This document shows, piece by piece, positions 30,138-39,066 of a DNA stretch of 64,000 nucleotides. The notes beneath the pieces are model-generated. The model saw only the letters and a program-made list of their open reading frames with translations, had not been told where the DNA came from and searched no databases. The stretch covers positions 1 to 64,000 of the forward strand of contig JAKSJO010000001.1 of the NCBI GenBank assembly GCA_024398125.1. The letters run 5' to 3'. Made by a program: the position numbers and the translations under genes. Source of the DNA: Bacteroidales bacterium (GTDB lineage: Bacteria; Bacteroidota; Bacteroidia; Bacteroidales; UBA932). The stretch's first letter is position 1. Every line of letters starts with the position of its first letter.

Positions 30138-31559
30138 ATGATGAAGTATTTCGAGACATTCAACGATTTCCTTTGGGGATATCTTCTGGTCGGCCTTCTG
30201 GCTGCATGTGCATTGTATTTCTCTATCCGCAGCGGCTTTGTCCAGTTCCGTCTGTTCCCGCAGATGTGCCGCCTCCTTTTCGGAGGAGAAGCCAACAAGG
30301 CTGTGAAGGAAGCTCCTGCTGCCGATGGCAAGTCGAAGAAAGGTATCTCTTCTTTCCAGGCTTTCGCAGTCTCGCTTGCATCCCGTGTCGGCACAGGCAA
30401 TCTTGCCGGCGTCGCTTCGGCTATCGTTGTCGGCGGTCCCGGTGCGGTTTTCTGGATGTGGGTGATGGCTCTGTTCGGAGCTGCGACATCATTCGTGGAG
30501 TCGACACTCGCGCAGCTGTATAAGATCAAGGGAAAGGATTCCTTTGTCGGCGGTCCTGCCTACTACATGCAGTTCGGCCTTGGAAAGCGCTGGATGGGTA
30601 TCATCTTCGCCGTGCTCATAACACTGACCTTCGGTCTCGCAAACTCGATGATGCAGACCAATACCATCTGTTCGGCTCTCGAAAATTCCTTCGGATTCAA
30701 GCCTGTCATTACCGGTATCGCGCTTGCGGCCCTTACCTGTCTGATCATCTTCGGCGGTATCCGCAGCATCTCTAGAGTCAGTTCGGTCATCGTGCCGATC
30801 ATGGCTGTCGGATATCTTTTGCTCGCAGTCTTCGTTGTATTGACCAACTTCACCAAGATTCCGGACGTCATCGCCCTTATCTTCCGCAGCGCGTTCGGAT
30901 GGGAACAGGCAGTCGGTGGAGGAATCGGTGCCGCTGTCATGCAGGGCTTCCGCCGTGGTCTCTTCAGCAACGAGGCTGGAGAAGGTTCAGCGCCTAATGC
31001 CGCTGCTGTCGCCGATGTCAACCATCCTGTAGAGCAAGGTCTCGTCCAGGCTCTCGGTGTATTTGTCGACACCCTGGTCGTGTGCTCATGTACAGCCTTC
31101 ATCATCCTTGTCAGCGGAGCTCCGCTTGACGGAACCCTGGACGGCATCAACCTGACCCAGGGCGCACTCCAGAATGAAGTAGGCGGCGCTGCAGTGCTCT
31201 TCGTGACCCTTGCAATCCTTTTCTTCGCATTCAGCTCGGTCCTCGGCAACACATATTATGGCGAGGCGAACATCCGCTTCATGTCAGGCAAGAAGTGGCT
31301 CATGACCGCGTACCGCGTATTTGTCTGTGTGATGGTGTTCCTCGGATCGCTCGTCAGCCTGTCGACCGCCTGGACGATCATCGACATCATGATGGGACTG
31401 CTGACACTCTGCAACCTTATTGCAATCGTTCCGCTGTCCCGCCGCGCTTTCATGCTCCTCAAGGATTATGTCGGCCAGCTCACAGCCGGCAAGCAGCCAG
31501 CCTTCCACAAGACATCCCTCGACGCCAAGGAGCAAACCGGCATCTCCCTCTGGGACTAG
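30138..31559 (+). CDS. AGCS-family alanine/glycine:cation symporter
   Basis: Inner-membrane sodium- or proton-coupled uptake system for alanine, glycine or a related amino acid. 473 residues with many membrane helices. AGCS hallmarks: SLASRVGTGNLAGVASAI, GPGAVFWMWVMALFGAATSF, FVGGPAYYM, FRRGLFSNEAGEGSAPNAAA. I choose the ATG at 30138 because a -7 element TACCTTTA (30125-30132) lies just upstream, which makes the longer frame from 30084 unlikely; ATG 30141 is equally possible. The last four bases (CTAG) overlap the end of the convergent argE-like gene. Confidence 0.92.
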   Translation: MMKYFETFNDFLWGYLLVGLLAACALYFSIRSGFVQFRLFPQMCRLLFGGEANKAVKEAPAADGKSKKGISSFQAFAVSLASRVGTGNLAGVASAIVVGGPGAVFWMWVMALFGAATSFVESTLAQLYKIKGKDSFVGGPAYYMQFGLGKRWMGIIFAVLITLTFGLANSMMQTNTICSALENSFGFKPVITGIALAALTCLIIFGGIRSISRVSSVIVPIMAVGYLLLAVFVVLTNFTKIPDVIALIFRSAFGWEQAVGGGIGAAVMQGFRRGLFSNEAGEGSAPNAAAVADVNHPVEQGLVQALGVFVDTLVVCSCTAFIILVSGAPLDGTLDGINLTQGALQNEVGGAAVLFVTLAILFFAFSSVLGNTYYGEANIRFMSGKKWLMTAYRVFVCVMVFLGSLVSLSTAWTIIDIMMGLLTLCNLIAIVPLSRRAFMLLKDYVGQLTAGKQPAFHKTSLDAKEQTGISLWD

Positions 31560-32680
31560 TCCGAATAGACTTCTGCGAGACAGGTGATGAAGCTTATGTA
31601 GCCTTCGATACCTTTACGGAGCTCATTGACTGTGACGTACTCGTCCTTGTGGTGGGAGCGGCGTGAATCGCCCGGACCCATCTTGACAGCCTCGCAATAG
31701 ATGCGGACCCAGTCCGATGTGGTCGGAGACGAGAACTGCTCAAGCCCCAGAAGACCGATTACAGCCATGAGCATTGATGACTTTGGTGTCGCTGAAGAGC
31801 GGTTCTTGAGGTTGCGCGCGGTAAGCTTGCTCTCACATATTCCCTGAAGCTCCTCAAGAAGTTCTGGATTGGAATACTGTTCGGTCGGACGTATGTCAAC
31901 CACGAACGAGCAAGTTCCTGGAATCACGTTGTGAGCGCTTCCGGCATTGATCTGGGTCACGTTCATCTTTACCTCACCCATGACCGGAGACACACGCTCG
32001 AACTTATGCGCACGGAGTTTTGCGATGTCATCCATCGCGATATAAAGGGCATTGCGACCCTCTTCGGCACGGGCGGCATGACAGGTTACACCCTCGGCAA
32101 GACCATCCAGAACAAGAAGTCCACGCTCGGAAGTCGCAGGCTTCATACCCGTAGGTTCGCCGACGATCGCCCATGTCGGATTCACGTTCTTCGGATGTAT
32201 AAGTGCCATTCCACCGCTTCCGGAGCGCTCCTCTTCTGAAGAGATCACAAGCTCGATGTTGAAAGGAAAACTCTTGTCAAGCAGGGCGCGGAAGGCTGCG
32301 ATCATGCTCACGATACATCCACCGTCGTCATTGCTGCCCAGTCCTGCGATTATGTCATCGTATGAATCGGCGTCTACGGATGCAAGGTCGAAAGCAGCTG
32401 CCACATCGGCCGCAGCTGGCTCGTACGGATCGAATGAATACCCATCGGCGGGATTCACCGTGTCGCAATGAGCACAGAGCATGAGCGTCTGGCGCGCAGG
32501 GTCATGATCGGCTCTTCGAACGATGAGGCTGTTGGCGATGCGCTCGTATTTCAGCCCCTTTGAATCGAGGAATCCGGCAATATGCGAACATACCTTCTCC
32601 TCCTCGAAGGTAGGGGAAGGTATGGCAATTATCTCGCGAAGGAGAGCGACGGACTCGCTAAGCAGTTTTTCAATGTCCAT
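31556..32680 (-). CDS. argE: M20-family deacylase, N-acyl-ornithine/citrulline deacetylase (ArgE-like)
   Basis: Zinc hydrolase expected to remove the N-acyl group from the arginine intermediate (N-acylcitrulline in Bacteroidetes). 374 residues with MLCAHCDTVNP, GSNDDGGCIVSMIAA, SSEEERSGSGG and GEPTG: the metal ligands and catalytic Asp/Glu of M20 peptidases. It is the last gene of the arginine operon, 2 bases after argB, which makes the arginine assignment much stronger than the family alone would. The stop codon interlocks with that of the convergent symporter gene. Confidence 0.9.
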   Translation of the reverse strand: MDIEKLLSESVALLREIIAIPSPTFEEEKVCSHIAGFLDSKGLKYERIANSLIVRRADHDPARQTLMLCAHCDTVNPADGYSFDPYEPAAADVAAAFDLASVDADSYDDIIAGLGSNDDGGCIVSMIAAFRALLDKSFPFNIELVISSEEERSGSGGMALIHPKNVNPTWAIVGEPTGMKPATSERGLLVLDGLAEGVTCHAARAEEGRNALYIAMDDIAKLRAHKFERVSPVMGEVKMNVTQINAGSAHNVIPGTCSFVVDIRPTEQYSNPELLEELQGICESKLTARNLKNRSSATPKSSMLMAVIGLLGLEQFSSPTTSDWVRIYCEAVKMGPGDSRRSHHKDEYVTVNELRKGIEGYISFITCLAEVYSD

Positions 32681-32682
32681 TG

Positions 32683-33468
32683 TTATCCAACGATATCGGT
32701 TTGGAGAGATGTCAGAATGTTCGCGGCATGCTTGATCACGACTCTCTTCACGCCGGCATTGATAGCCTTGAATGCGTTCTCAAGCTTTGGAAGCATGCCT
32801 CCGGAGACTGTTCCATCAGCCTTGAGGGCTGCAAAAGACTCCGGGTTTATCTCGGAAATGACGCTGTTGTCATCCTCTGGGTCCGCGAGCACTCCGTTCT
32901 TTTCGAAACAGTATATGAGCTCGGCAGGGGAGAGCGATGCAATCTCCGTAGCGACTGACTGTGCAACGGTGTCTGCATTGGTGTTGAGCAGCTGGCCGTT
33001 GCCGTCATGTGTGATGGCGCAGATGACAGGAACGATGTCTGCATCGATAAGCTTCATGAGCAGCTGGCCGTCAACCTTGTCGACGTCGCCCACATATCCG
33101 TAGTCCACAACCTCGCCGGCTGCCTCTGAGAACACAGGCGGACGCTTGTGCGAACGGATGACGTCGCCGTCAGCTCCACTGAGTCCGAGTGCATTGCAGT
33201 TGTTCTTCTGGAGCAGAGCCACGACAGTCTTGTTGGTCAGGCCTGCATAGACCATGCTTACGATGCGGAGAGTATCGGCGTCAGTGACACGGCGGCCGCC
33301 GATCATCTGTGGCTGCATGCCAAGCTCCTTCTGCATCTTGCTGGCTATGGCACCACCGCCATGTATGAGCACCTTCGGACCTGGGATCGCTGCGAAGTCG
33401 GCGGTGAAGCGCTCCAGCATCTCAGGGTTGTCGATGACGTTGCCGCCGATCTTGAATACCTTTATCAT
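32683..33468 (-). CDS. argB: N-acylglutamate kinase (ArgB)
   Basis: Phosphorylates the gamma-carboxyl of N-acyl-glutamate. 261 residues: FKIGGNVIDN with the N-terminal Lys-Gly-Gly, VLIHGGGAIASKMQKELG, the TDADTLRIVSMVYAGLTNK signature, and a C-terminal SGGMLPKLENAFKAINAGVKRVVI. It lacks the N-terminal helix of arginine-inhibited hexameric forms, so feedback control at this enzyme is not expected from the sequence. It is located between argF' (10-base gap) and argE (2-base gap). Confidence 0.95.
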   Translation of the reverse strand: MIKVFKIGGNVIDNPEMLERFTADFAAIPGPKVLIHGGGAIASKMQKELGMQPQMIGGRRVTDADTLRIVSMVYAGLTNKTVVALLQKNNCNALGLSGADGDVIRSHKRPPVFSEAAGEVVDYGYVGDVDKVDGQLLMKLIDADIVPVICAITHDGNGQLLNTNADTVAQSVATEIASLSPAELIYCFEKNGVLADPEDDNSVISEINPESFAALKADGTVSGGMLPKLENAFKAINAGVKRVVIKHAANILTSLQTDIVG

Positions 33469-33478
33469 AGCTCGGGAA

Positions 33479-34432
33479 TTAAAGTCCGAGAAGAATCTCC
33501 TTGATTATCGTCTGGGCTGAAACGACGCGGTTTGCAGCCTCCTGGATGACGATTGACTGAGGGCTCTCGATCACGTCGTCGGTGACGATCATGTTGCGGC
33601 GGACAGGAAGACAGTGCATGAAGTATGCGTTGTTGGTAAGAGCCATCTTGCGGCTGTCCACTGTCCAGCTGCGGTCCATGCTGAGTACCTTGCCGTAGTT
33701 CTCTGCCTCGTATGCAGACCAGTTCTTCGCATAGATGAAGTCTGCGCCCTCGAAAGCTTTGTCCTGGTCGTACTCGATGGTAGCGTTTCCGGTGAACTTA
33801 GGGTCGAGCTCATATCCGTGAGGATGGGTGATTACGAACTCGTAGTCGGTCATGTTGATACCCTCTGCGAATGAGTTTGGAACTGCCTGTGGAAGTGACT
33901 TTGGATGAGGTGCCCATGTCATAACGACCTTTGGACGGTCCTTCTTCTTGTATTCCTCGATGGTGATGATGTCGGCAAATGTCTGGAGTGGATGTACTGT
34001 GGCGGTCTCCATGCTGAATACAGGCTTGCCTGAGTACTGGATGAACTGGTTCAGGATAAGTTCGGTGTAGTCATCGTTGCGGTTCTCGAAACGTGCGAAT
34101 GAACGTACGCCGATCATGTCGCAGTAGCTGCCCATGACTGGAATGGCCTCGAGAAGGTGCTCTGGCTTGTCGCCGTCCATGATGACGCCGCGCTCGGTCT
34201 CGAGCTTCCAGGCTCCCTGATTAACGTCAAGGACAATCACATTCATTCCGAGGTTCATTGCTGCCTTCTGGGTGCTGAGGCGTGTGCGCAGGCTGGAGTT
34301 GAAGAAAATCATGAGCAACGTGCGGTTGCGTCCGAGCTCCTGGTCTGCGAATGGGTTTGCCTTTACATAGAGGGCCTTTTCAACGGCCTGCTTGATGTCG
34401 CCAAGCTGGGTGATGGATGTGAAATGTCTCAT
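33479..34432 (-). CDS. argF': N-acylornithine transcarbamylase, N-succinylornithine type
   Basis: Carbamoylates N-acylornithine to N-acylcitrulline. 317 residues. Carbamoyl-phosphate motif SSLRTR (46-51), HPLQTFAD, and FMHCLPVRRN near the C-terminus. It has the long insert typical of the N-acylornithine branch and lacks the ornithine-binding motif of ordinary OTCases. Residue 90 is Pro (in DKPEH), the residue reported to set succinylornithine specificity in the Bacteroides fragilis enzyme, where acetylornithine enzymes have Glu. I therefore infer N-succinylornithine as substrate. It overlaps the argD stop by one base. Confidence 0.93.
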   Translation of the reverse strand: MRHFTSITQLGDIKQAVEKALYVKANPFADQELGRNRTLLMIFFNSSLRTRLSTQKAAMNLGMNVIVLDVNQGAWKLETERGVIMDGDKPEHLLEAIPVMGSYCDMIGVRSFARFENRNDDYTELILNQFIQYSGKPVFSMETATVHPLQTFADIITIEEYKKKDRPKVVMTWAPHPKSLPQAVPNSFAEGINMTDYEFVITHPHGYELDPKFTGNATIEYDQDKAFEGADFIYAKNWSAYEAENYGKVLSMDRSWTVDSRKMALTNNAYFMHCLPVRRNMIVTDDVIESPQSIVIQEAANRVVSAQTIIKEILLGL

Positions 34433-35556
34433 TATTTTGTCAGTTCGTTGTATGCGTTGATGAAACTGTCTGCTGTTTCCTCGGAAACGGTGAGGGATGG
34501 AAGGAGGCGGATCACGCCGGCTCCAGCCGCGCCTGTGAAGAAGTGCTTCTCGAAAAGAAGCCTGTCACGCAGACCGATATATTCTTCCTTGAGCTCAAGG
34601 CCGATCATGAGGCCTTTGCCACGATATTCCTTGAGGCTGTGATGTCCCTCGAGTGCCGCTCTGAAGCGCTCTCCGATCTTTGCTGCATTCTCTACGAGAT
34701 GCTCGTTCTCGATGATGTCGAGGACTGCGAGAGCACCGGTACATGCGAGGTGGTTGCCTCCGAAAGTGGTTCCGAGCATGCCGTACTCAGCCTTTACCTT
34801 AGGAGAGATGAGCACTCCACCGATAGGGAAGCCATTCGCCATGCCCTTCGCTGTGGTCACGATGTCGGCCTCGATGCCTGCATGCTGGTGAGCGAAGAAC
34901 TTGCCGGTACGGCCGTATCCTGACTGGATCTCGTCGAGGATAAGAAGAGTGCCGAACTTGTCGCAGAGGTCTCTGAGGGACTTGAGGAAACTGTCGGTAG
35001 GCTCGTAGATTCCTGCAACACCCTGGATGCCTTCGATGATGACGCCTGCGTACTGGCCGCTTGCGAGTTCCTTCTCGACTGCCTCGATGTCGTTCAGAGG
35101 AACGAAGGTCACGTTGGAATTCTTGTTGAACGGAGCCTGGATCTTCGGATTGTCGGTCGCCGATACTGCACCTGAAGTACGTCCGTGGAAGGCCTTGCTG
35201 AAAGCGAGGATCTTTGGACGTCCGGTGTGGAATGACGCTACCTTGAAAGCGTTCTCGTTTGCCTCGGCTCCGCTGTTGCAGAGAAAGAGACTGTGTTCGG
35301 TGTATCCGCTGACCTGTCCCAGACGGCTTGCGAGCTCCTTCTGGATGGAGTTCTGGACAGCATTGGAGTAGAATCCGAGCTTGTTGAGCTGTGCGGTCAT
35401 CATCTCTACGTAGTGTGGATGGCAGTGACCGACGCTGATTACGGCATGACCGCCGTAGAGATCAGTATATACCTGGCCTTTATCGTCCCAAAGGGTGGTG
35501 TCCAGACCCTTCACGGGCTCGATGTCCCAGAGTTTGTATGTCTTGAAAAGTTCCAT
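34432..35556 (-). CDS. argD: N-acylornithine aminotransferase
   Basis: PLP enzyme converting N-acylglutamate semialdehyde to N-acylornithine. 374 residues; YGGHAVISVGHCHP at the N-terminus, NSGAEANENAFKVASFHTGR, LLILDEIQSGYGRTGKFFA with the class III signature, and the Schiff-base lysine in TTAKGMANGFPIGG. It shares one base with argC upstream and one with argF' downstream, so it is translationally coupled both ways. Substrate acyl group (succinyl or acetyl) is decided by pathway context. Confidence 0.95.
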   Translation of the reverse strand: MELFKTYKLWDIEPVKGLDTTLWDDKGQVYTDLYGGHAVISVGHCHPHYVEMMTAQLNKLGFYSNAVQNSIQKELASRLGQVSGYTEHSLFLCNSGAEANENAFKVASFHTGRPKILAFSKAFHGRTSGAVSATDNPKIQAPFNKNSNVTFVPLNDIEAVEKELASGQYAGVIIEGIQGVAGIYEPTDSFLKSLRDLCDKFGTLLILDEIQSGYGRTGKFFAHQHAGIEADIVTTAKGMANGFPIGGVLISPKVKAEYGMLGTTFGGNHLACTGALAVLDIIENEHLVENAAKIGERFRAALEGHHSLKEYRGKGLMIGLELKEEYIGLRDRLLFEKHFFTGAAGAGVIRLLPSLTVSEETADSFINAYNELTK

Positions 35557-36518
35557 TAGAATGCTGATGCTTTAAGTTTGAGGCCGGTGTTCTCCGGAAG
35601 TCCGAATATGATGTTCATGTTCTGGACTGCCTGGCCTGATGCTCCCTTGAGGAGGTTGTCGATGACTGATGAGATGACGAGCTTCTTGCCGTGCTTCTCG
35701 ACGTTGACGAGGCACTTGTTGGTATTCACTACCTGCTTGAGGTCGATAGGGAAGTCTGCCACATGGGTGAATGCTGCGCCTTCGTAGTAGTTGCGGTACA
35801 GCTGGAGAGCCTCTTCTCCTTCGAGCTCGCAGTCGACTGTCGCGCTGACGAAGATGCCGCGTGCGAAGTCGCCACGCATTGGCACGAAGTTGATGTCAGC
35901 CTCGAATCCCGGCTGAAGGATGCCCATGTCGCGGCGGATCTCCTTGAGGTGCTGGTGCTCGAATACCTTGTATGTCGAAAGGTTGTTGTTGCGCCAGCTG
36001 AAGTGTGTGGTGGCACCTGGCTTTACTCCTGCTCCAGTCGAACCTGTGATCGCTGTGATGTTGATCTCGCTGTTGAGCAGTCCTGCCGCAGCAAGCGGAA
36101 GGAGCGCGAGCTGGATGGCTGTCGCGAAGCATCCAGGGTTTGCAACGAGCTTGGCGTCGCGGATCTTCGCGATCTGCATCTCCGGCAGACCGTAAACGAA
36201 TCCTTCGCTCTCGTCGCGGAAATCCTGGGCAAGGTCGACTACCTTGAGGTTTTCGGGACGTGCGTTCTCCTGCCAGAAGCCTGCACTCTTGCCATGAGCC
36301 GAGCACATGAAGAGCACGTCGATGGTGTTGAGGTCGAAACTGTCGCTGAAAAGCATGTCAGTGTCGCCGTAGAGGCCTTCGTGAACCTTCCAGAGCGGAT
36401 TGCCCGCATTGCTCTCCGAGTGGACGAATGCCACTTCCACCTCCGGGTGGTTGAGGAGAATCCTGAGAAGTTCGCCTGCGGTATAGCCTGCACCGCCGAT
36501 GATACCTGCCTTAATCAT
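35556..36518 (-). CDS. argC: N-acyl-gamma-glutamyl-phosphate reductase
   Basis: NADPH-dependent reduction of N-acylglutamyl phosphate to the semialdehyde. 320 residues with IIGGAGYTAGELLRIL (nucleotide binding), the catalytic cysteine in VANPGCFATAIQLALLPL, and ITGSTGAGVKPGATTHFSWR. The gap to argG upstream is one base. Normal length. Confidence 0.96.
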   Translation of the reverse strand: MIKAGIIGGAGYTAGELLRILLNHPEVEVAFVHSESNAGNPLWKVHEGLYGDTDMLFSDSFDLNTIDVLFMCSAHGKSAGFWQENARPENLKVVDLAQDFRDESEGFVYGLPEMQIAKIRDAKLVANPGCFATAIQLALLPLAAAGLLNSEINITAITGSTGAGVKPGATTHFSWRNNNLSTYKVFEHQHLKEIRRDMGILQPGFEADINFVPMRGDFARGIFVSATVDCELEGEEALQLYRNYYEGAAFTHVADFPIDLKQVVNTNKCLVNVEKHGKKLVISSVIDNLLKGASGQAVQNMNIIFGLPENTGLKLKASAF

Positions 36519-36519
36519 A

Positions 36520-37722
36520 TTAGATCTGCTCGTCCTTGTGGTTGCCGTAGTATACGCGGAGTGGGGTAGAGGTTACCTTGATGAAGCCCTTTGCCTCTTC
36601 TGCGGTCCAGCCCTTCTGGGTCTCGCCGTATTCGCCGAGCTTGCTCTTTACGAGGTCATCAGCTGAATCCACGCCTACGGTTGAGAATCCGTATGGACGG
36701 AGCTCGAGGGTAACGATTCCGTTCACGTTGCGCTGGCTGTTCTCGAGCATTGCCTCGATGTCACGCATGACAGGCTCGAGATACTGGCTCTCGTGGAGGA
36801 ACATTCCGTACCAGTTTGCAACCTGGTCCTTCCAGTACTGCTGCCACTTGCTGAGGGTGAACTTCTCGAGGAACTTGTGCGCGCCGATGATGAGCATAGG
36901 AGCTGCAGCCTCGAAGCCTACACGGCCCTTGATGCCGATAATGGTGTCGCCGACATGCATGTCGCGGCCGATGCCGTATGCAGCGCCGATCTCCTCGACA
37001 GCCTGGATAGCTGCGATCTTGTCCTCATAGTCCTTGCCGTTCACTGATGCGAGCTCGCCGTTCTTGAAACCGAGGCTGAGAATCTCGCTGCCCTCGCGCT
37101 TAACCTGCTTGAGGTATGCAGTCTCAGGAAGTCCCTGACGTGAATCAAGGATCTCGCCGCCGCAGATGCTGGTTCCCCAGATACCTACGTTGTAAGAGTA
37201 CTTGAGCTTTGCGAAGTCTGCGTTGAAGCCGTTTGCGTTGAGGTAGTCCACTTCGTCCTTGCGGCTGAGGTTGCCGTCGCGGGTAAGAGTGATGATCTCC
37301 ATGTCCGGACACATCACGAGGAAGGTCATGTCAAAGCGTACCTGGTCGTTGCCTGCGCCGGTAGAACCGTGTGCGATTGCGGATGCACCGATCTCCTTTG
37401 CGTAGCGTGCGATGGCCATGCCCTGGAAGATACGCTCAGATGAAACTGAGATAGGATAGGTTCCGTTGCGGAGTACGTTTCCGTACACCATGTAGCGGAG
37501 GCTCTTGTCGTAGTATTCCTTGGTGACGTCGAGGGTCACATACTTGGTTGCACCGAGCTTGTAGGCATTCTCCTCATTGGTCTTGAGCTGTTCAGGACTG
37601 AAACCGCCTGTGTTTGCGCATGCTGCATGTACTTCGTAACCTTTCTCCTTTGCCAGATACATCACGGTATAGGAAGTATCCAGACCGCCGCTGAATGCGA
37701 CAACTACTTTCTTCTTGCTCAT
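36520..37722 (-). CDS. argG: Argininosuccinate synthase
   Basis: ATP-dependent condensation of citrulline and aspartate. 400 residues; N-terminal PP-loop KVVVAFSGGLDTSYTVMYLA, GSTGAGNDQVRFDMTF, and the later GFEAAAPMLIIGAHKFLEKF. Second gene of the operon, 14 bases after the GNAT gene. In the pathway it acts after the deacylase encoded by the last gene. Confidence 0.97.
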   Translation of the reverse strand: MSKKKVVVAFSGGLDTSYTVMYLAKEKGYEVHAACANTGGFSPEQLKTNEENAYKLGATKYVTLDVTKEYYDKSLRYMVYGNVLRNGTYPISVSSERIFQGMAIARYAKEIGASAIAHGSTGAGNDQVRFDMTFLVMCPDMEIITLTRDGNLSRKDEVDYLNANGFNADFAKLKYSYNVGIWGTSICGGEILDSRQGLPETAYLKQVKREGSEILSLGFKNGELASVNGKDYEDKIAAIQAVEEIGAAYGIGRDMHVGDTIIGIKGRVGFEAAAPMLIIGAHKFLEKFTLSKWQQYWKDQVANWYGMFLHESQYLEPVMRDIEAMLENSQRNVNGIVTLELRPYGFSTVGVDSADDLVKSKLGEYGETQKGWTAEEAKGFIKVTSTPLRVYYGNHKDEQI

Positions 37723-37736
37723 ATTGTGTTTCTTTT

Positions 37737-38291
37737 TTAGTCTACGGTGATTGTGATATGCTCCTTTGGATCATAGAGGAGGCCTGTGCAGATGCATCTC
37801 TGGAATCCGTTCTCCTCGAGGATATGATAGTTCTTGCAACCCTGGCAGCCCTTCCAGAACTCAGGGTCGTCGGTAAGCTCAGAGAATGGAACAGGACGGA
37901 AGCCGAGAGAATAGTTCATCTTCATGACTGCCGCGCCGGTGGTGATGCTGAATATCTTTGCGTCAGGGAACTTTTCGCGGCTGAGGTCGAAGATGCGCTT
38001 CTTGATCAGCTTTGCGAGGCCGAGGCCACGGAACTTGTGTGCCACGATGAGGCCTGAGTTTGCGACAAACTGCTTGCCGCCCCAGCTCTCGATGTATGAG
38101 AATCCGGCGAACTCCTCGCCGTCAGCTATCGCGATGACAGCCTTTCCGGCCTTCATCTTCTCGATGATGTACTCAGGGGTTCTCTTTGCGATTCCCGTAC
38201 CGCGCTCCTGGGCGGATACGAAGACCTCGTCGCAGATGGCCTGAGCAAACTTTGCGTGGCTTTCGTCAGCCACCAATACTTCAATTTTCAT
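37737..38291 (-). CDS. GNAT acyltransferase, candidate N-acylglutamate synthase
   Basis: 184 residues. The GNAT core is visible: VIAIADGEEFAGFSYIE, then the acyl-CoA-binding segment VAHKFRGLGLAKLIKKRIF. A C-terminal extension carries cysteines in the pattern CQGCKNYHILEENGFQRCIC, which might bind a metal. It is the first gene of the arginine operon and no other argA or argJ candidate is seen here, so I infer it makes the N-acylglutamate (succinyl or acetyl) that starts the pathway. The family alone would not show this. Confidence 0.8.
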   Translation of the reverse strand: MKIEVLVADESHAKFAQAICDEVFVSAQERGTGIAKRTPEYIIEKMKAGKAVIAIADGEEFAGFSYIESWGGKQFVANSGLIVAHKFRGLGLAKLIKKRIFDLSREKFPDAKIFSITTGAAVMKMNYSLGFRPVPFSELTDDPEFWKGCQGCKNYHILEENGFQRCICTGLLYDPKEHITITVD

Positions 38292-38499
38292 ATGTTGTTT
38301 CTACTTCTTTTTCAGTTCGTTTTATTCAATACGTCCGGGCAAAAGACCGCCCTAACGGCAAGACAAACCTAGATTGTCCATTGCAATTGACGTGGGGAAA
38401 ATGTGTTTCCAAGGGTATGGGAGGACAGGTTCCGTCGAACCTTCCTCCTATCTTCGGGCACGAAGAGATGTGCCACGTATGTAACCTGAAATGGTCATA
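38292..38499 (-). promoter_or_regulatory. Arginine operon leader with hairpins
   Basis: About 208 bases between the predicted transcription start and the GNAT gene. It contains a possible 16-codon ORF (38498-38448), then a 12-bp hairpin at 38448-38420 (arms GGAGGAAGGTTC and GAACCTGTCCTCC with a one-base bulge) beginning at the ORF's stop codon. The hairpin's 3' arm (AACCTG) can instead pair with CAGGTT inside the ORF (38488-38483) or with AGGTT at 38370-38366. Further short stems follow, but no classical terminator with a long T-run. The layout resembles attenuation; mechanism inferred. Confidence 0.5.
38448..38498 (-). CDS. Possible arginine leader peptide (16 residues)
   Basis: ATG at 38498, stop TAG at 38450-38448, reading MTISGYIRGTSLRARR: four arginines in 16 residues, three of them in the last five. 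It lies directly before the strong hairpin in the leader of the arginine operon. Against it: the predicted promoter -7 element ends only 7 bases before the ATG, so the message would be leaderless or nearly so, and no Shine-Dalgarno is possible. Confidence 0.45.
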   Translation of the reverse strand: MTISGYIRGTSLRARR

Positions 38500-38505
38500 A
38501 GCGGC

Positions 38506-38537
38506 GCAAAGATAATCAATCCATTTAACTTTTCAAC
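38506..38537 (-). promoter_or_regulatory. Arginine operon promoter
   Basis: On the minus strand: GTTG (38537-38534), 19 bases, then TATCTTTGC (38514-38506), a perfect -7 element with a three-of-four -33 element. Confidence 0.65.
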
Positions 38538-38554
38538 CTATATTATAGGGAAAG

Positions 38555-38989
38555 TTACCTCTTCGACTTGAAATATGAGCTTACAAGATCGGAACATTCA
38601 TCGCTCATGAGACCGTTTTCGACTACAGTCTTGGGGTGAAGAAGTGAAGGGGAGAACAGACTGTAGCCGCGCTTTGGGTCGGATGCCCCGTATACAATGC
38701 GGCCTATCTGGGCCCAGGCAAGAGCGGCTGCGCACATCGGACATGGCTCGACTGTTACGTACAATGTACAGTCATTCAGATACTTGCCTCCCTTGGCCTC
38801 GGTCGCCGAGGTTATGGCGATCATCTCGGCATGGGCGGTAGGGTCGTTCAGCTTTTCGGTCATGTTGTGGCCGCGGGCTATCACGCGACCTTTGCAGACT
38901 ATGACGGCTCCGATCGGCACTTCATCCTCGCGCATCGCTTCACGTGCTTCGGCAAGTGCCTCCTTCATGTATCTTTCGTCCTGTTCCAT
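38555..38989 (-). CDS. tadA: tRNA-specific adenosine deaminase
   Basis: Converts adenosine 34 of tRNA-Arg(ACG) to inosine. 144 residues with the zinc/catalytic motifs TAHAEMIAI and VEPCPMCAAALAW. I start at MEQDERYMKEAL (38989): a perfect -7 element (TATCTTTGC on the minus strand, 39014-39006) directly abuts the upstream ATG at 39004 and so excludes it and all longer versions. Divergent from an ABC importer gene, with an inverted repeat between them. Confidence 0.93.
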   Translation of the reverse strand: MEQDERYMKEALAEAREAMREDEVPIGAVIVCKGRVIARGHNMTEKLNDPTAHAEMIAITSATEAKGGKYLNDCTLYVTVEPCPMCAAALAWAQIGRIVYGASDPKRGYSLFSPSLLHPKTVVENGLMSDECSDLVSSYFKSKR

Positions 38990-39005
38990 TGTATTTCTTT
39001 TCATG

Positions 39006-39014
39006 GCAAAGATA
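39006..39014 (-). promoter_or_regulatory. tadA -7 promoter element
   Basis: TATCTTTGC on the minus strand, giving a transcript start near 39000 and a leader of about 10 bases to the chosen ATG. Confidence 0.6.
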
Positions 39015-39017
39015 GTC

Positions 39018-39066
39018 AGAAGTTGTTTTGAAACCTTCCTTTGCACGTTATTTCGAAACAACTTCT
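39018..39066. repeat. 16-bp inverted repeat between tadA and the ABC permease
   Basis: AGAAGTTGTTTTGAAA (39018-39033) and TTTCGAAACAACTTCT (39051-39066) match 15 of 16 as an inverted repeat around 17 bases. The arms fit the 18-base motif found at several other intergenic places in the window. The repeat covers the region between two divergent promoters, so it could be a regulator site. Confidence 0.75.

What the first reader, a model, noticed from the sequence alone, without database searches (positions are those of the whole stretch)
38420..38498. Candidate arginine leader peptide and alternative hairpins ahead of the arginine operon
Seen: a 16-codon frame (MTISGYIRGTSLRARR) with four Arg, three of them in the last five residues, whose stop codon starts a 12-bp hairpin. 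The hairpin's 3' arm AACCTG can pair with CAGGTT in the ORF (38488-38483), with the 5' arm, or with AGGTT at 38370-38366, giving mutually exclusive folds. Known: amino-acid attenuation uses stalling at codons for the end product. Inference: ribosome stalling at the Arg codons switches this leader. Such attenuation is little described in Bacteroidota. Weak points: the promoter puts the ATG within a few bases of the transcript start, and there is no classical terminator T-run.
Basis: partly seen in the sequence, partly recalled or inferred. Interest (0 to 1): 0.75.

Follow-up and report, generated by a model that had tools for sequence, protein, structure and literature searches.

The report
Arginine-codon switch before arginine genes
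A gut bacterium that lacks the usual arginine repressor carries, before its arginine-making genes, a tiny arginine-rich gene starting almost at the RNA's first letter, plus a nearly unchanging RNA hairpin; together they probably switch the pathway on when arginine runs short.

Summary
The 16-codon frame heads an arg operon. Of 81 upstream regions fetched by the first gene's protein alone (window included), 58 have such a leader by a fixed rule; of 64 more fetched through the element below, 60 do; 88 are distinct. Lengths are 11-33 codons, and the ATG lies 6-10 nt after the -7 box. The rare codon CGA is penultimate in 84 of 88. A hairpin starts at the stop codon. The own genome shows no tRNA-Arg(UCG), so CGA should be read by tRNA-Arg(ICG).

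ArgR is absent from the own genome. In 398 family genomes the element (57) and ArgR (75) co-occur once (10.7 expected).

None of 57 arg leaders has a hairpin plus T-run; all 8 his upstream regions checked in the genus do. How stalling acts on expression is therefore unknown; Rho-dependent termination is my leading guess.

Its bulge resembles the arginine-sandwich motif.

Verdict: well-supported Arg-tRNA-sensing leader, an unusual variant of ribosome-mediated attenuation.

The parts
38534..38536 (-). -33 promoter element TTG
   Evidence: Read by eye; 19 nt before the -7 box. The sigma-70-type scan also lists a site at 38536-38509.
38507..38514 (-). -7 promoter box TATCTTTG, 8 nt before the leader ATG
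   Evidence: the gap is 6-10 nt in 88 distinct leaders.
38448..38498 (-). Arg leader ORF MTISGYIRGTSLRARR with stop TAG; penultimate codon CGA
38420..38448 (-). Stop-codon hairpin (12 bp, one bulged base)
   Evidence: a hairpin begins within 5 nt of the first base of the stop codon in 57 of 57 predicted folds.
38358..38384 (-). 27-nt conserved hairpin GCAAUNGACAAUCNNGGUUUGUCUUGC (9 bp with a U+N bulge and 7-nt loop)
   Evidence: compensatory pair in G571.
38332..38357 (-). Predicted third hairpin, group-specific sequence, low confidence
   Evidence: Fold only; a weak terminator-like match at 38361-38347 overlaps it.
37737..38291 (-). First structural gene: GNAT acetyltransferase, probable N-acetylglutamate synthase (inferred from its place)
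   Evidence: Pfam PF00583 at 22.7 bits, cut-off 20.7; no NCBIfam hit at 1e-10.
36520..37722 (-). argG, argininosuccinate synthase
   Evidence: TIGR00032 241 bits, under its cut-off of 268.
35556..36518 (-). argC
   Evidence: TIGR01850, over cut-off.
34432..35556 (-). argD-type aminotransferase
   Evidence: TIGR00707 372 bits, under its cut-off of 410.
33479..34432 (-). N-acetylornithine carbamoyltransferase (argF')
   Evidence: NF003384, over cut-off.
32683..33468 (-). argB
   Evidence: TIGR00761, over cut-off.
31556..32680 (-). M20-family deacylase, ArgE-like
   Evidence: NCBIfam hits under cut-off, Pfam M20 over cut-off.

Best explanation
A short leader ORF, translated from an AUG at or within a few nt of the 5' end of the transcript, lets a ribosome measure charged tRNA-Arg(ICG) at a CGA codon placed just before the stop codon. 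The stop-codon hairpin overlaps the footprint of a ribosome waiting at that CGA or at the stop, so a waiting ribosome (arginine short) keeps the hairpin open and a released one (arginine plentiful) lets it form; that changes the downstream untranslated leader and with it expression of the arg operon. Shown here by sequence: ORF, start position, CGA position, hairpin position, conservation, near-absence of genomes with both the element and ArgR, tRNA gene set. Inferred: translation, stalling, direction of control. Guess: the output is Rho-dependent termination (or mRNA decay) in the untranslated stretch, because no hairpin plus T-run is seen. The invariant 27-nt hairpin would be a second input or the binding site of the effector.
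For: 58 of 81 regions fetched by the GNAT protein have the leader by a fixed rule; in the looser scan 57 of 62 near-5' short ORFs have CGA penultimate. Of 59 regions with both a box-placed ATG and the terminal CCGA/AGGAGG motif, 58 keep it in frame (L005 not; CGA-containing frames were preferred where several ATGs offered). 88 distinct leaders, 16 lengths from 11 to 33 codons; CGA penultimate in 84, last in L174, and in L017, L160 and L200 the stop has moved 9 nt downstream with CGA still in frame. Arg is 278 of 1587 residues, or 190 of 1499 without the CGA that the rule required, against 220 of 5021 codons in 14 window genes; CGA is 72 of 168 Arg codons upstream of the last two codons against 7 of 220 in those genes. 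The four tRNA-Arg genes found have anticodons UCU, CCU, ACG and CCG, so CGA should depend on ICG wobble, an isoacceptor shared with CGU/CGC (177 of 220). ArgR: 0 in the own genome; 57 element, 75 ArgR, 1 both in 398 family genomes (Fisher p 4e-5; within genus 55, 55, 1 of 161, p 7e-12); 15, 21, 0 of 61 in the genus sample; 5 ArgR genomes among the 80 named, none with leader or element.
Against: No transcript start, translation or arginine response was measured. No hairpin plus T-run in 57 of 57, so the classical output is missing; the scan does list one weak terminator-like site in the window (1 found, 0.4 expected). Hairpin stability is only moderate against shuffles (mean z -1.3; 10 of 57 under -2). 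No general alternative pairing for the Arg-codon segment (10 of 88 at p<=0.05). Seven loci keep the element without an Arg leader (L029, L037, L045, L047, L050, L059, L067) and some leaders lack the element (L004, L021, L025, L031, L033), so the two parts are separable. In L017, L160 and L200 the stop codon is displaced. One genome (G854) has both ArgR and element. The genome samples overlap and share ancestry, so the p-values overstate; on the GNAT tree the ArgR label changes 4 times, at least 2 forced. The rule itself demanded CGA within the last five codons.
Confidence: 0.72

Rival explanations
1. Same sensing step, but the output is translational or by mRNA stability: the ribosome near the 5' end protects the transcript, or leader structures change access to the start of the GNAT gene. 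No premature termination is involved.
For: No T-run terminator; the leaderless polycysteine ORFs of mycobacteria are reported to act on translation of downstream genes (PMC9031893 passage).
Against: The element lies 53 to about 170 nt before the GNAT start, an awkward and variable distance for masking a start codon; no SD-type start is expected in Bacteroidota (recalled).
Confidence: 0.3
2. The 27-nt hairpin is the real regulator (ligand aptamer or site for an RNA-binding protein) and the leader ORF mainly loads ribosomes or tunes it.
For: 24 of 27 positions identical in every copy found in the named and genus loci (76 of 95 loci); only bulge position 2 and two loop positions vary; kept in seven loci without an Arg leader; compensatory C-G to U-A change in G571.
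Against: Five leaders without the element keep CGA and a stop-codon hairpin; heavy CGA enrichment inside the ORF is unexplained by this alone.
Confidence: 0.25
3. Nascent-peptide arrest: the peptide C-terminus (VRL/VRI) stalls the ribosome in response to free arginine or ornithine, like SpeFL (recalled).
For: VRL or VRI ends are common (GTC CGA in most leaders).
Against: Other leaders end RARR, RDRR, GRR, VRR, CRI, VRQ or VRK and share little upstream peptide sequence; codon-level bias to CGA is not expected.
Confidence: 0.08
4. DNA-level control: the 27-nt near-palindrome is an operator for an unknown repressor that replaced ArgR.
For: Inverted repeat, invariant sequence, one hit in most genomes that have it.
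Against: Left arm carries two extra bases (bulge) that a dimer site would not need; position after the -7 box varies from a few nt (L045, L047, L050) to over 100 nt; in L030 and L051 the two strands appear in swapped order about 40 nt apart (by eye).
Confidence: 0.1

Closest known systems
Leaderless polycysteine short ORFs upstream of cys genes in mycobacteria (Canestrari et al. 2020, cited in PMC9031893 and PMC13236596, paper itself not held; predicted in PMC1262725 and seen in PMC4633059; passages only)
   Same: Short ORF at or near the transcript 5' end; codons for the end product near the stop; no obvious intrinsic terminator.
   Different: Arginine, not cysteine; Bacteroidota; single CGA just before the stop; dedicated stop-codon hairpin and a downstream invariant RNA hairpin; distribution complementary to ArgR.
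Ribosome-mediated transcription attenuators of the trp/his/ilv type, including the his and ilv leaders of this same genus
   Same: Leader peptide rich in the end-product amino acid ahead of its biosynthetic operon, with hairpins that a ribosome would disturb.
   Different: 0 of 57 arg leaders have hairpin plus T-run, against 8 of 8 his upstream regions; no conserved terminator/antiterminator pair found.
ArgR/ARG-box repression of arginine operons
   Same: Same operon and end product; used by relatives in the same genus.
   Different: ArgR absent from the own genome and almost never found with the element (1 of 398).
Arginine sandwich motif of 7SK and TAR RNAs (PMC6189040 passages)
   Same: Predicted fold has a two-base bulge with an invariant first U, an A-U pair below, G-C then A-U above.
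   Different: Known motif holds an arginine side chain of a protein; here only a sequence likeness, no binding shown, and much more of the hairpin is invariant than that motif needs.

Membership tests
Classical ribosome-mediated transcription attenuator | Short leader ORF enriched in end-product codons before the biosynthetic operon | tested here: met
Classical ribosome-mediated transcription attenuator | Intrinsic terminator (hairpin plus U-run) between leader ORF and first gene | tested here: not met
   0 of 57 by a hairpin-plus-6T-in-8 scan; the laxer scan gives one weak site in the window, 0.4 expected.
Classical ribosome-mediated transcription attenuator | Conserved mutually exclusive antiterminator | tested here: inconclusive
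Classical ribosome-mediated transcription attenuator | Expression responds to the amino acid through stalling | not testable with these tools
   Needs experiments.
Leaderless short-ORF attenuator (mycobacterial cysteine type) | ORF start at or next to the transcript 5' end | tested here: inconclusive
   ATG 6-10 nt after the -7 box in 88 distinct leaders; transcript start not mapped.
Leaderless short-ORF attenuator (mycobacterial cysteine type) | End-product codons close to the stop | tested here: met
   CGA penultimate in 84 of 88 (rule required CGA in the last five codons); 57 of 62.
Leaderless short-ORF attenuator (mycobacterial cysteine type) | Shown to attenuate in response to the amino acid | not testable with these tools
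   Needs experiments.
ArgR-controlled arginine operon | ArgR gene in the genome | tested here: not met
   PF02863: no match in G000, 97.6% complete.
T-box or other Rfam leader | Match to an Rfam family | tested here: not met
   0 at gathering score in the window; three unrelated sub-threshold hits, E 0.15-9.3, in 281 bases.
Arginine sandwich motif | Bulge pyrimidine next to an A-U pair below and G-C, A-U pairs above | tested here: met
   Predicted fold of the element, invariant at these positions; in the window's own 27-mer the computed minimum shifts by one pair.
Arginine sandwich motif | Binds a guanidinium group | not testable with these tools
   Needs binding assays.

The most novel reading that the evidence does not exclude
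The 27-nt hairpin is a natural arginine aptamer built on an arginine-sandwich bulge, so this leader reads arginine twice: as charged tRNA-Arg at a CGA codon and as free arginine at an RNA pocket, together replacing ArgR. The review PMC10043782 (passage) names only an unconvincing fungal claim for an arginine riboswitch, and my search for five phrasings found one paper, listing only.
Probability: 0.12. Interest if true: 0.92.

Novelty: new variant of a known kind. Interest (0 to 1): 0.7.

Why it matters
It offers a way of controlling arginine synthesis in gut Bacteroidales that lack the standard repressor, through a leader peptide that appears to start at the very 5' end of its mRNA, in a phylum that hardly uses Shine-Dalgarno starts and where leaderless mRNAs are reported as rare (3.7% of 5' UTRs under 10 nt in B. 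thetaiotaomicron, PMC7366714 passage; 5.5% in F. psychrophilum, PMC9723704 passage). The near-exclusive distribution of ArgR and the element within one genus makes regulator replacement directly testable, and the invariant hairpin is a compact candidate for ligand or protein binding.

Tried and rejected
Chance ORF: rejected by conservation. A general partner for the Arg-codon segment: 10 of 88 downstream and 5 of 88 upstream at p<=0.05, not convincing. A second downstream partner for the strand GGUUUGUCUUGCC: 7 of 61 at p<=0.05, 4 of 61 at p<=0.01; strong only in L008, L045, L047, L050 and L054, so not general. Known RNA family: no Rfam hit. Element outside this family: in a 393-genome order sample, hits with up to 2 mismatches outside the window's genus lie near the reversed-pattern background, and the exact hit L116 and one-mismatch hits L100 and L109 look coding. 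Rut-like composition: C exceeds G in 53 of 58 loci between hairpin and element, C/G 1.67, but no control was run. Same-type leaders for other amino acids: a first scan of the HisG and IlvD loci missed them; reading eight of the 16 and then scanning all 16 in the right orientation found classical attenuators. Structure prediction, fold search and building an RNA model were not used.

Full report
What is there. On the minus strand, 207 nt before a GNAT gene, a promoter (TTG-19-TATCTTTG, 38536-38507) is followed 8 nt later by an ATG (38498) opening a 16-codon frame, MTISGYIRGTSLRARR, stop 38450-38448. A 12-bp hairpin starts at the last base of the stop codon (38448-38420). The genes behind it are GNAT, argG, argC, argD-type, N-acetylornithine carbamoyltransferase, argB and an ArgE-like deacylase, contiguous on the same strand; argH and proC lie further on, past a plus-strand ORF. 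Several family scores lie under NCBI's cut-offs (argG, argD, ArgE-like, proC), so those names are family-level.

Conservation of the leader. The GNAT protein fetched 80 loci (the best 80 of 465 relatives). Taking an ATG 6-9 nt after a -7 box and a frame under 45 codons, 62 of 81 regions (window included) have one, and 57 of the 62 have CGA as the penultimate codon (where several ATGs offered, a CGA-containing frame was preferred). Of the 59 regions with both a box-placed ATG and the terminal motif, 58 keep the motif in frame. With a stricter written rule, which requires a CGA preceded by C within the last five codons, 58 of these 81 and 60 of 64 further regions have a leader; 88 of the 118 are distinct. 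The 64 were fetched through the downstream element, not through the leader. The 88 have 16 different lengths (11 to 33 codons), a gap of 6 to 10 nt (mode 8; 5 to 10 allowed), CGA penultimate in 84, last in one from another genus (L174), and in three (L017, L160, L200) the stop codon has moved 9 nt on while CGA stays in frame and AGGAGG is kept. Codon 7 is ATA in 66 of 88, unexplained. Peptides end VRL, VRI, RARR, RDRR, VRR and others, so no peptide sequence is conserved beyond the Arg.

Why CGA. In 14 window genes CGA is 7 of 220 Arg codons; in the leaders, leaving out the last two codons, it is 72 of 168 (related sequences, not independent). The own genome's 37 tRNA matches, all covered by ARAGORN, include tRNA-Arg with anticodons UCU, CCU, ACG and CCG and none with UCG (genome 97.6% complete). 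CGA should therefore be read by ICG through inosine-adenosine wobble (decoding rule: PMC10454642 passages), sharing that tRNA with CGU and CGC, 177 of the 220 codons. By the selective-charging argument (PMC1183508 passages) such a codon should be among the first to slow when arginine runs short; that last step is inference.

The stop-codon hairpin. In 57 of 57 leaders the predicted first pair lies 0 to 5 nt after the first base of the stop codon. Most share AGGAGG...CCUCC, but four (L004, L021, L031, L033) have an unrelated hairpin (GCC...GGC) at the same place. Stability against shuffles is modest (mean z -1.3; 16 of 57 under -1.5, 10 under -2). A ribosome with CGA or the stop in its A site would cover the 5' arm (footprint recalled).

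No intrinsic terminator. 0 of 57 have a hairpin followed by six T in eight. The same scan found one in 8 of 8 HisG upstream regions of the same genus, 7 of which also have a leader with four or five His, and in 4 of 8 IlvD upstream regions, 3 of which show an Ile/Leu/Val-rich leader, the own genome's among them. Against this, the laxer scanner lists one weak site at 38361-38347. The arg leader therefore differs from its neighbours in output. Three of the eight his leaders also start 6-7 nt after the box, so the start arrangement is not unique to arg.

The element. At 38384-38358 lies GCAAUNGACAAUCNNGGUUUGUCUUGC, found within 500 nt before the GNAT gene in 60 of 80 loci; in L064 it lies with the leader before an extra first gene. 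In 76 of 95 loci (15 of them fetched by the element) 24 of 27 positions never vary, although up to four substitutions were allowed; only bulge position 2 and two loop positions do. Among 398 family genomes, 58 real sites in 57 genomes include 56 exact ones, one with a loop change (G837), and one in another genus, G571, with GUAA...UUAC for GCAA...UUGC, a compensatory change; changing one side alone removes the lower stem in the predicted fold. A further three-mismatch hit in G708 is taken as chance. The predicted fold is nine pairs with a U+N bulge (z about -2 for the common form and the window, weaker for the other two; G571's lower stem is not in its own minimum-energy fold). Hits elsewhere in the order are near background. 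The bulge has the features described for arginine sandwich motifs (PMC6189040 passages), which is the basis of my boldest reading.

Relation to ArgR. PF02863 finds no ArgR in the own genome. Genus sample: element 15, ArgR 21, both 0, of 61. Named genomes: ArgR in 5 of 80, none with leader or element. Family sample: element 57, ArgR 75, both 1 (G854), of 398; within the genus 55, 55 and 1 of 161 (counted by hand; Fisher). The samples overlap and genomes are related. On the GNAT tree the ArgR label needs 4 changes, at least 2 forced by starred branches. Many genomes have neither (52 of 161 in the genus); I did not test whether they make arginine.

Mechanism and what is open. Sensing of charged tRNA-Arg at the terminal CGA, with the ribosome controlling the stop-codon hairpin, explains the start position, codon choice, codon position, hairpin position and ArgR pattern. 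The output step is not shown. I prefer Rho-dependent termination in the untranslated stretch, with translational or stability control as the main rival. The element keeps company with the leader but is separable from it in both directions (element alone in seven loci, leader alone in five, swapped strands in L030 and L051 by eye), which suggests a second input.

Literature seen. Passages only of PMC9723704, PMC7366714, PMC4633059, PMC1262725, PMC13236596, PMC4997734, PMC6189040, PMC9031893, PMC1183508, PMC10043782 and PMC10454642; search listings otherwise. Searches for an arginine leader peptide in Bacteroidota or an arginine attenuator listed nothing describing this system; the library is open-access only. 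The polycysteine paper (PMC8764745) is not held.

Noticed in passing
window 38555-39022 (minus): tadA, the tRNA adenosine(34) deaminase that makes the ICG anticodon needed for CGA (NF008113, 127.7 bits, under its cut-off of 150), lies directly upstream on the same strand. tblastn finds it at this place only in L003 among 80 loci (73 with 900 nt or more upstream), so probably coincidence.
   Followed up: yes
L129, L130, L132, L135, L137, L138: Classical-looking his and ilv attenuators in the same genus (e.g. MRKYNAYHHHHRI*, MIKSSSIIVLTLGLLALSERGMGR*), three his leaders with the ATG 6-7 nt after the -7 box.
   Followed up: partly
88 distinct leaders; window 38480-38478: Codon 7 of the leader is ATA in 66 of 88, at a fixed distance from the start whatever the ORF length.
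   Followed up: no
L073 against L062: L073 looks like a natural deletion of nearly the whole leader and element, joining the promoter to the GNAT start, while its GNAT protein is close to L062.
   Followed up: no
L064: An extra gene has come between leader plus element and the GNAT gene; the leader is now 1.5 kb upstream.
   Followed up: no
L004, L021, L031, L033: These leaders have a different stop-codon hairpin and, instead of the element, a conserved CGGGACAGCAGAATCCCA hairpin.
   Followed up: no
L069, L082: A strong hairpin directly after the -7 box before the GNAT gene, with no leader, element or ArgR.
   Followed up: no
L002 (own genome, C9:29224-29751): A second GNAT protein 51% identical to the operon's first gene.
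   Followed up: no
G877 (L150, L176): Two element copies with leaders matching two different relatives, perhaps a mixed assembly.
   Followed up: no
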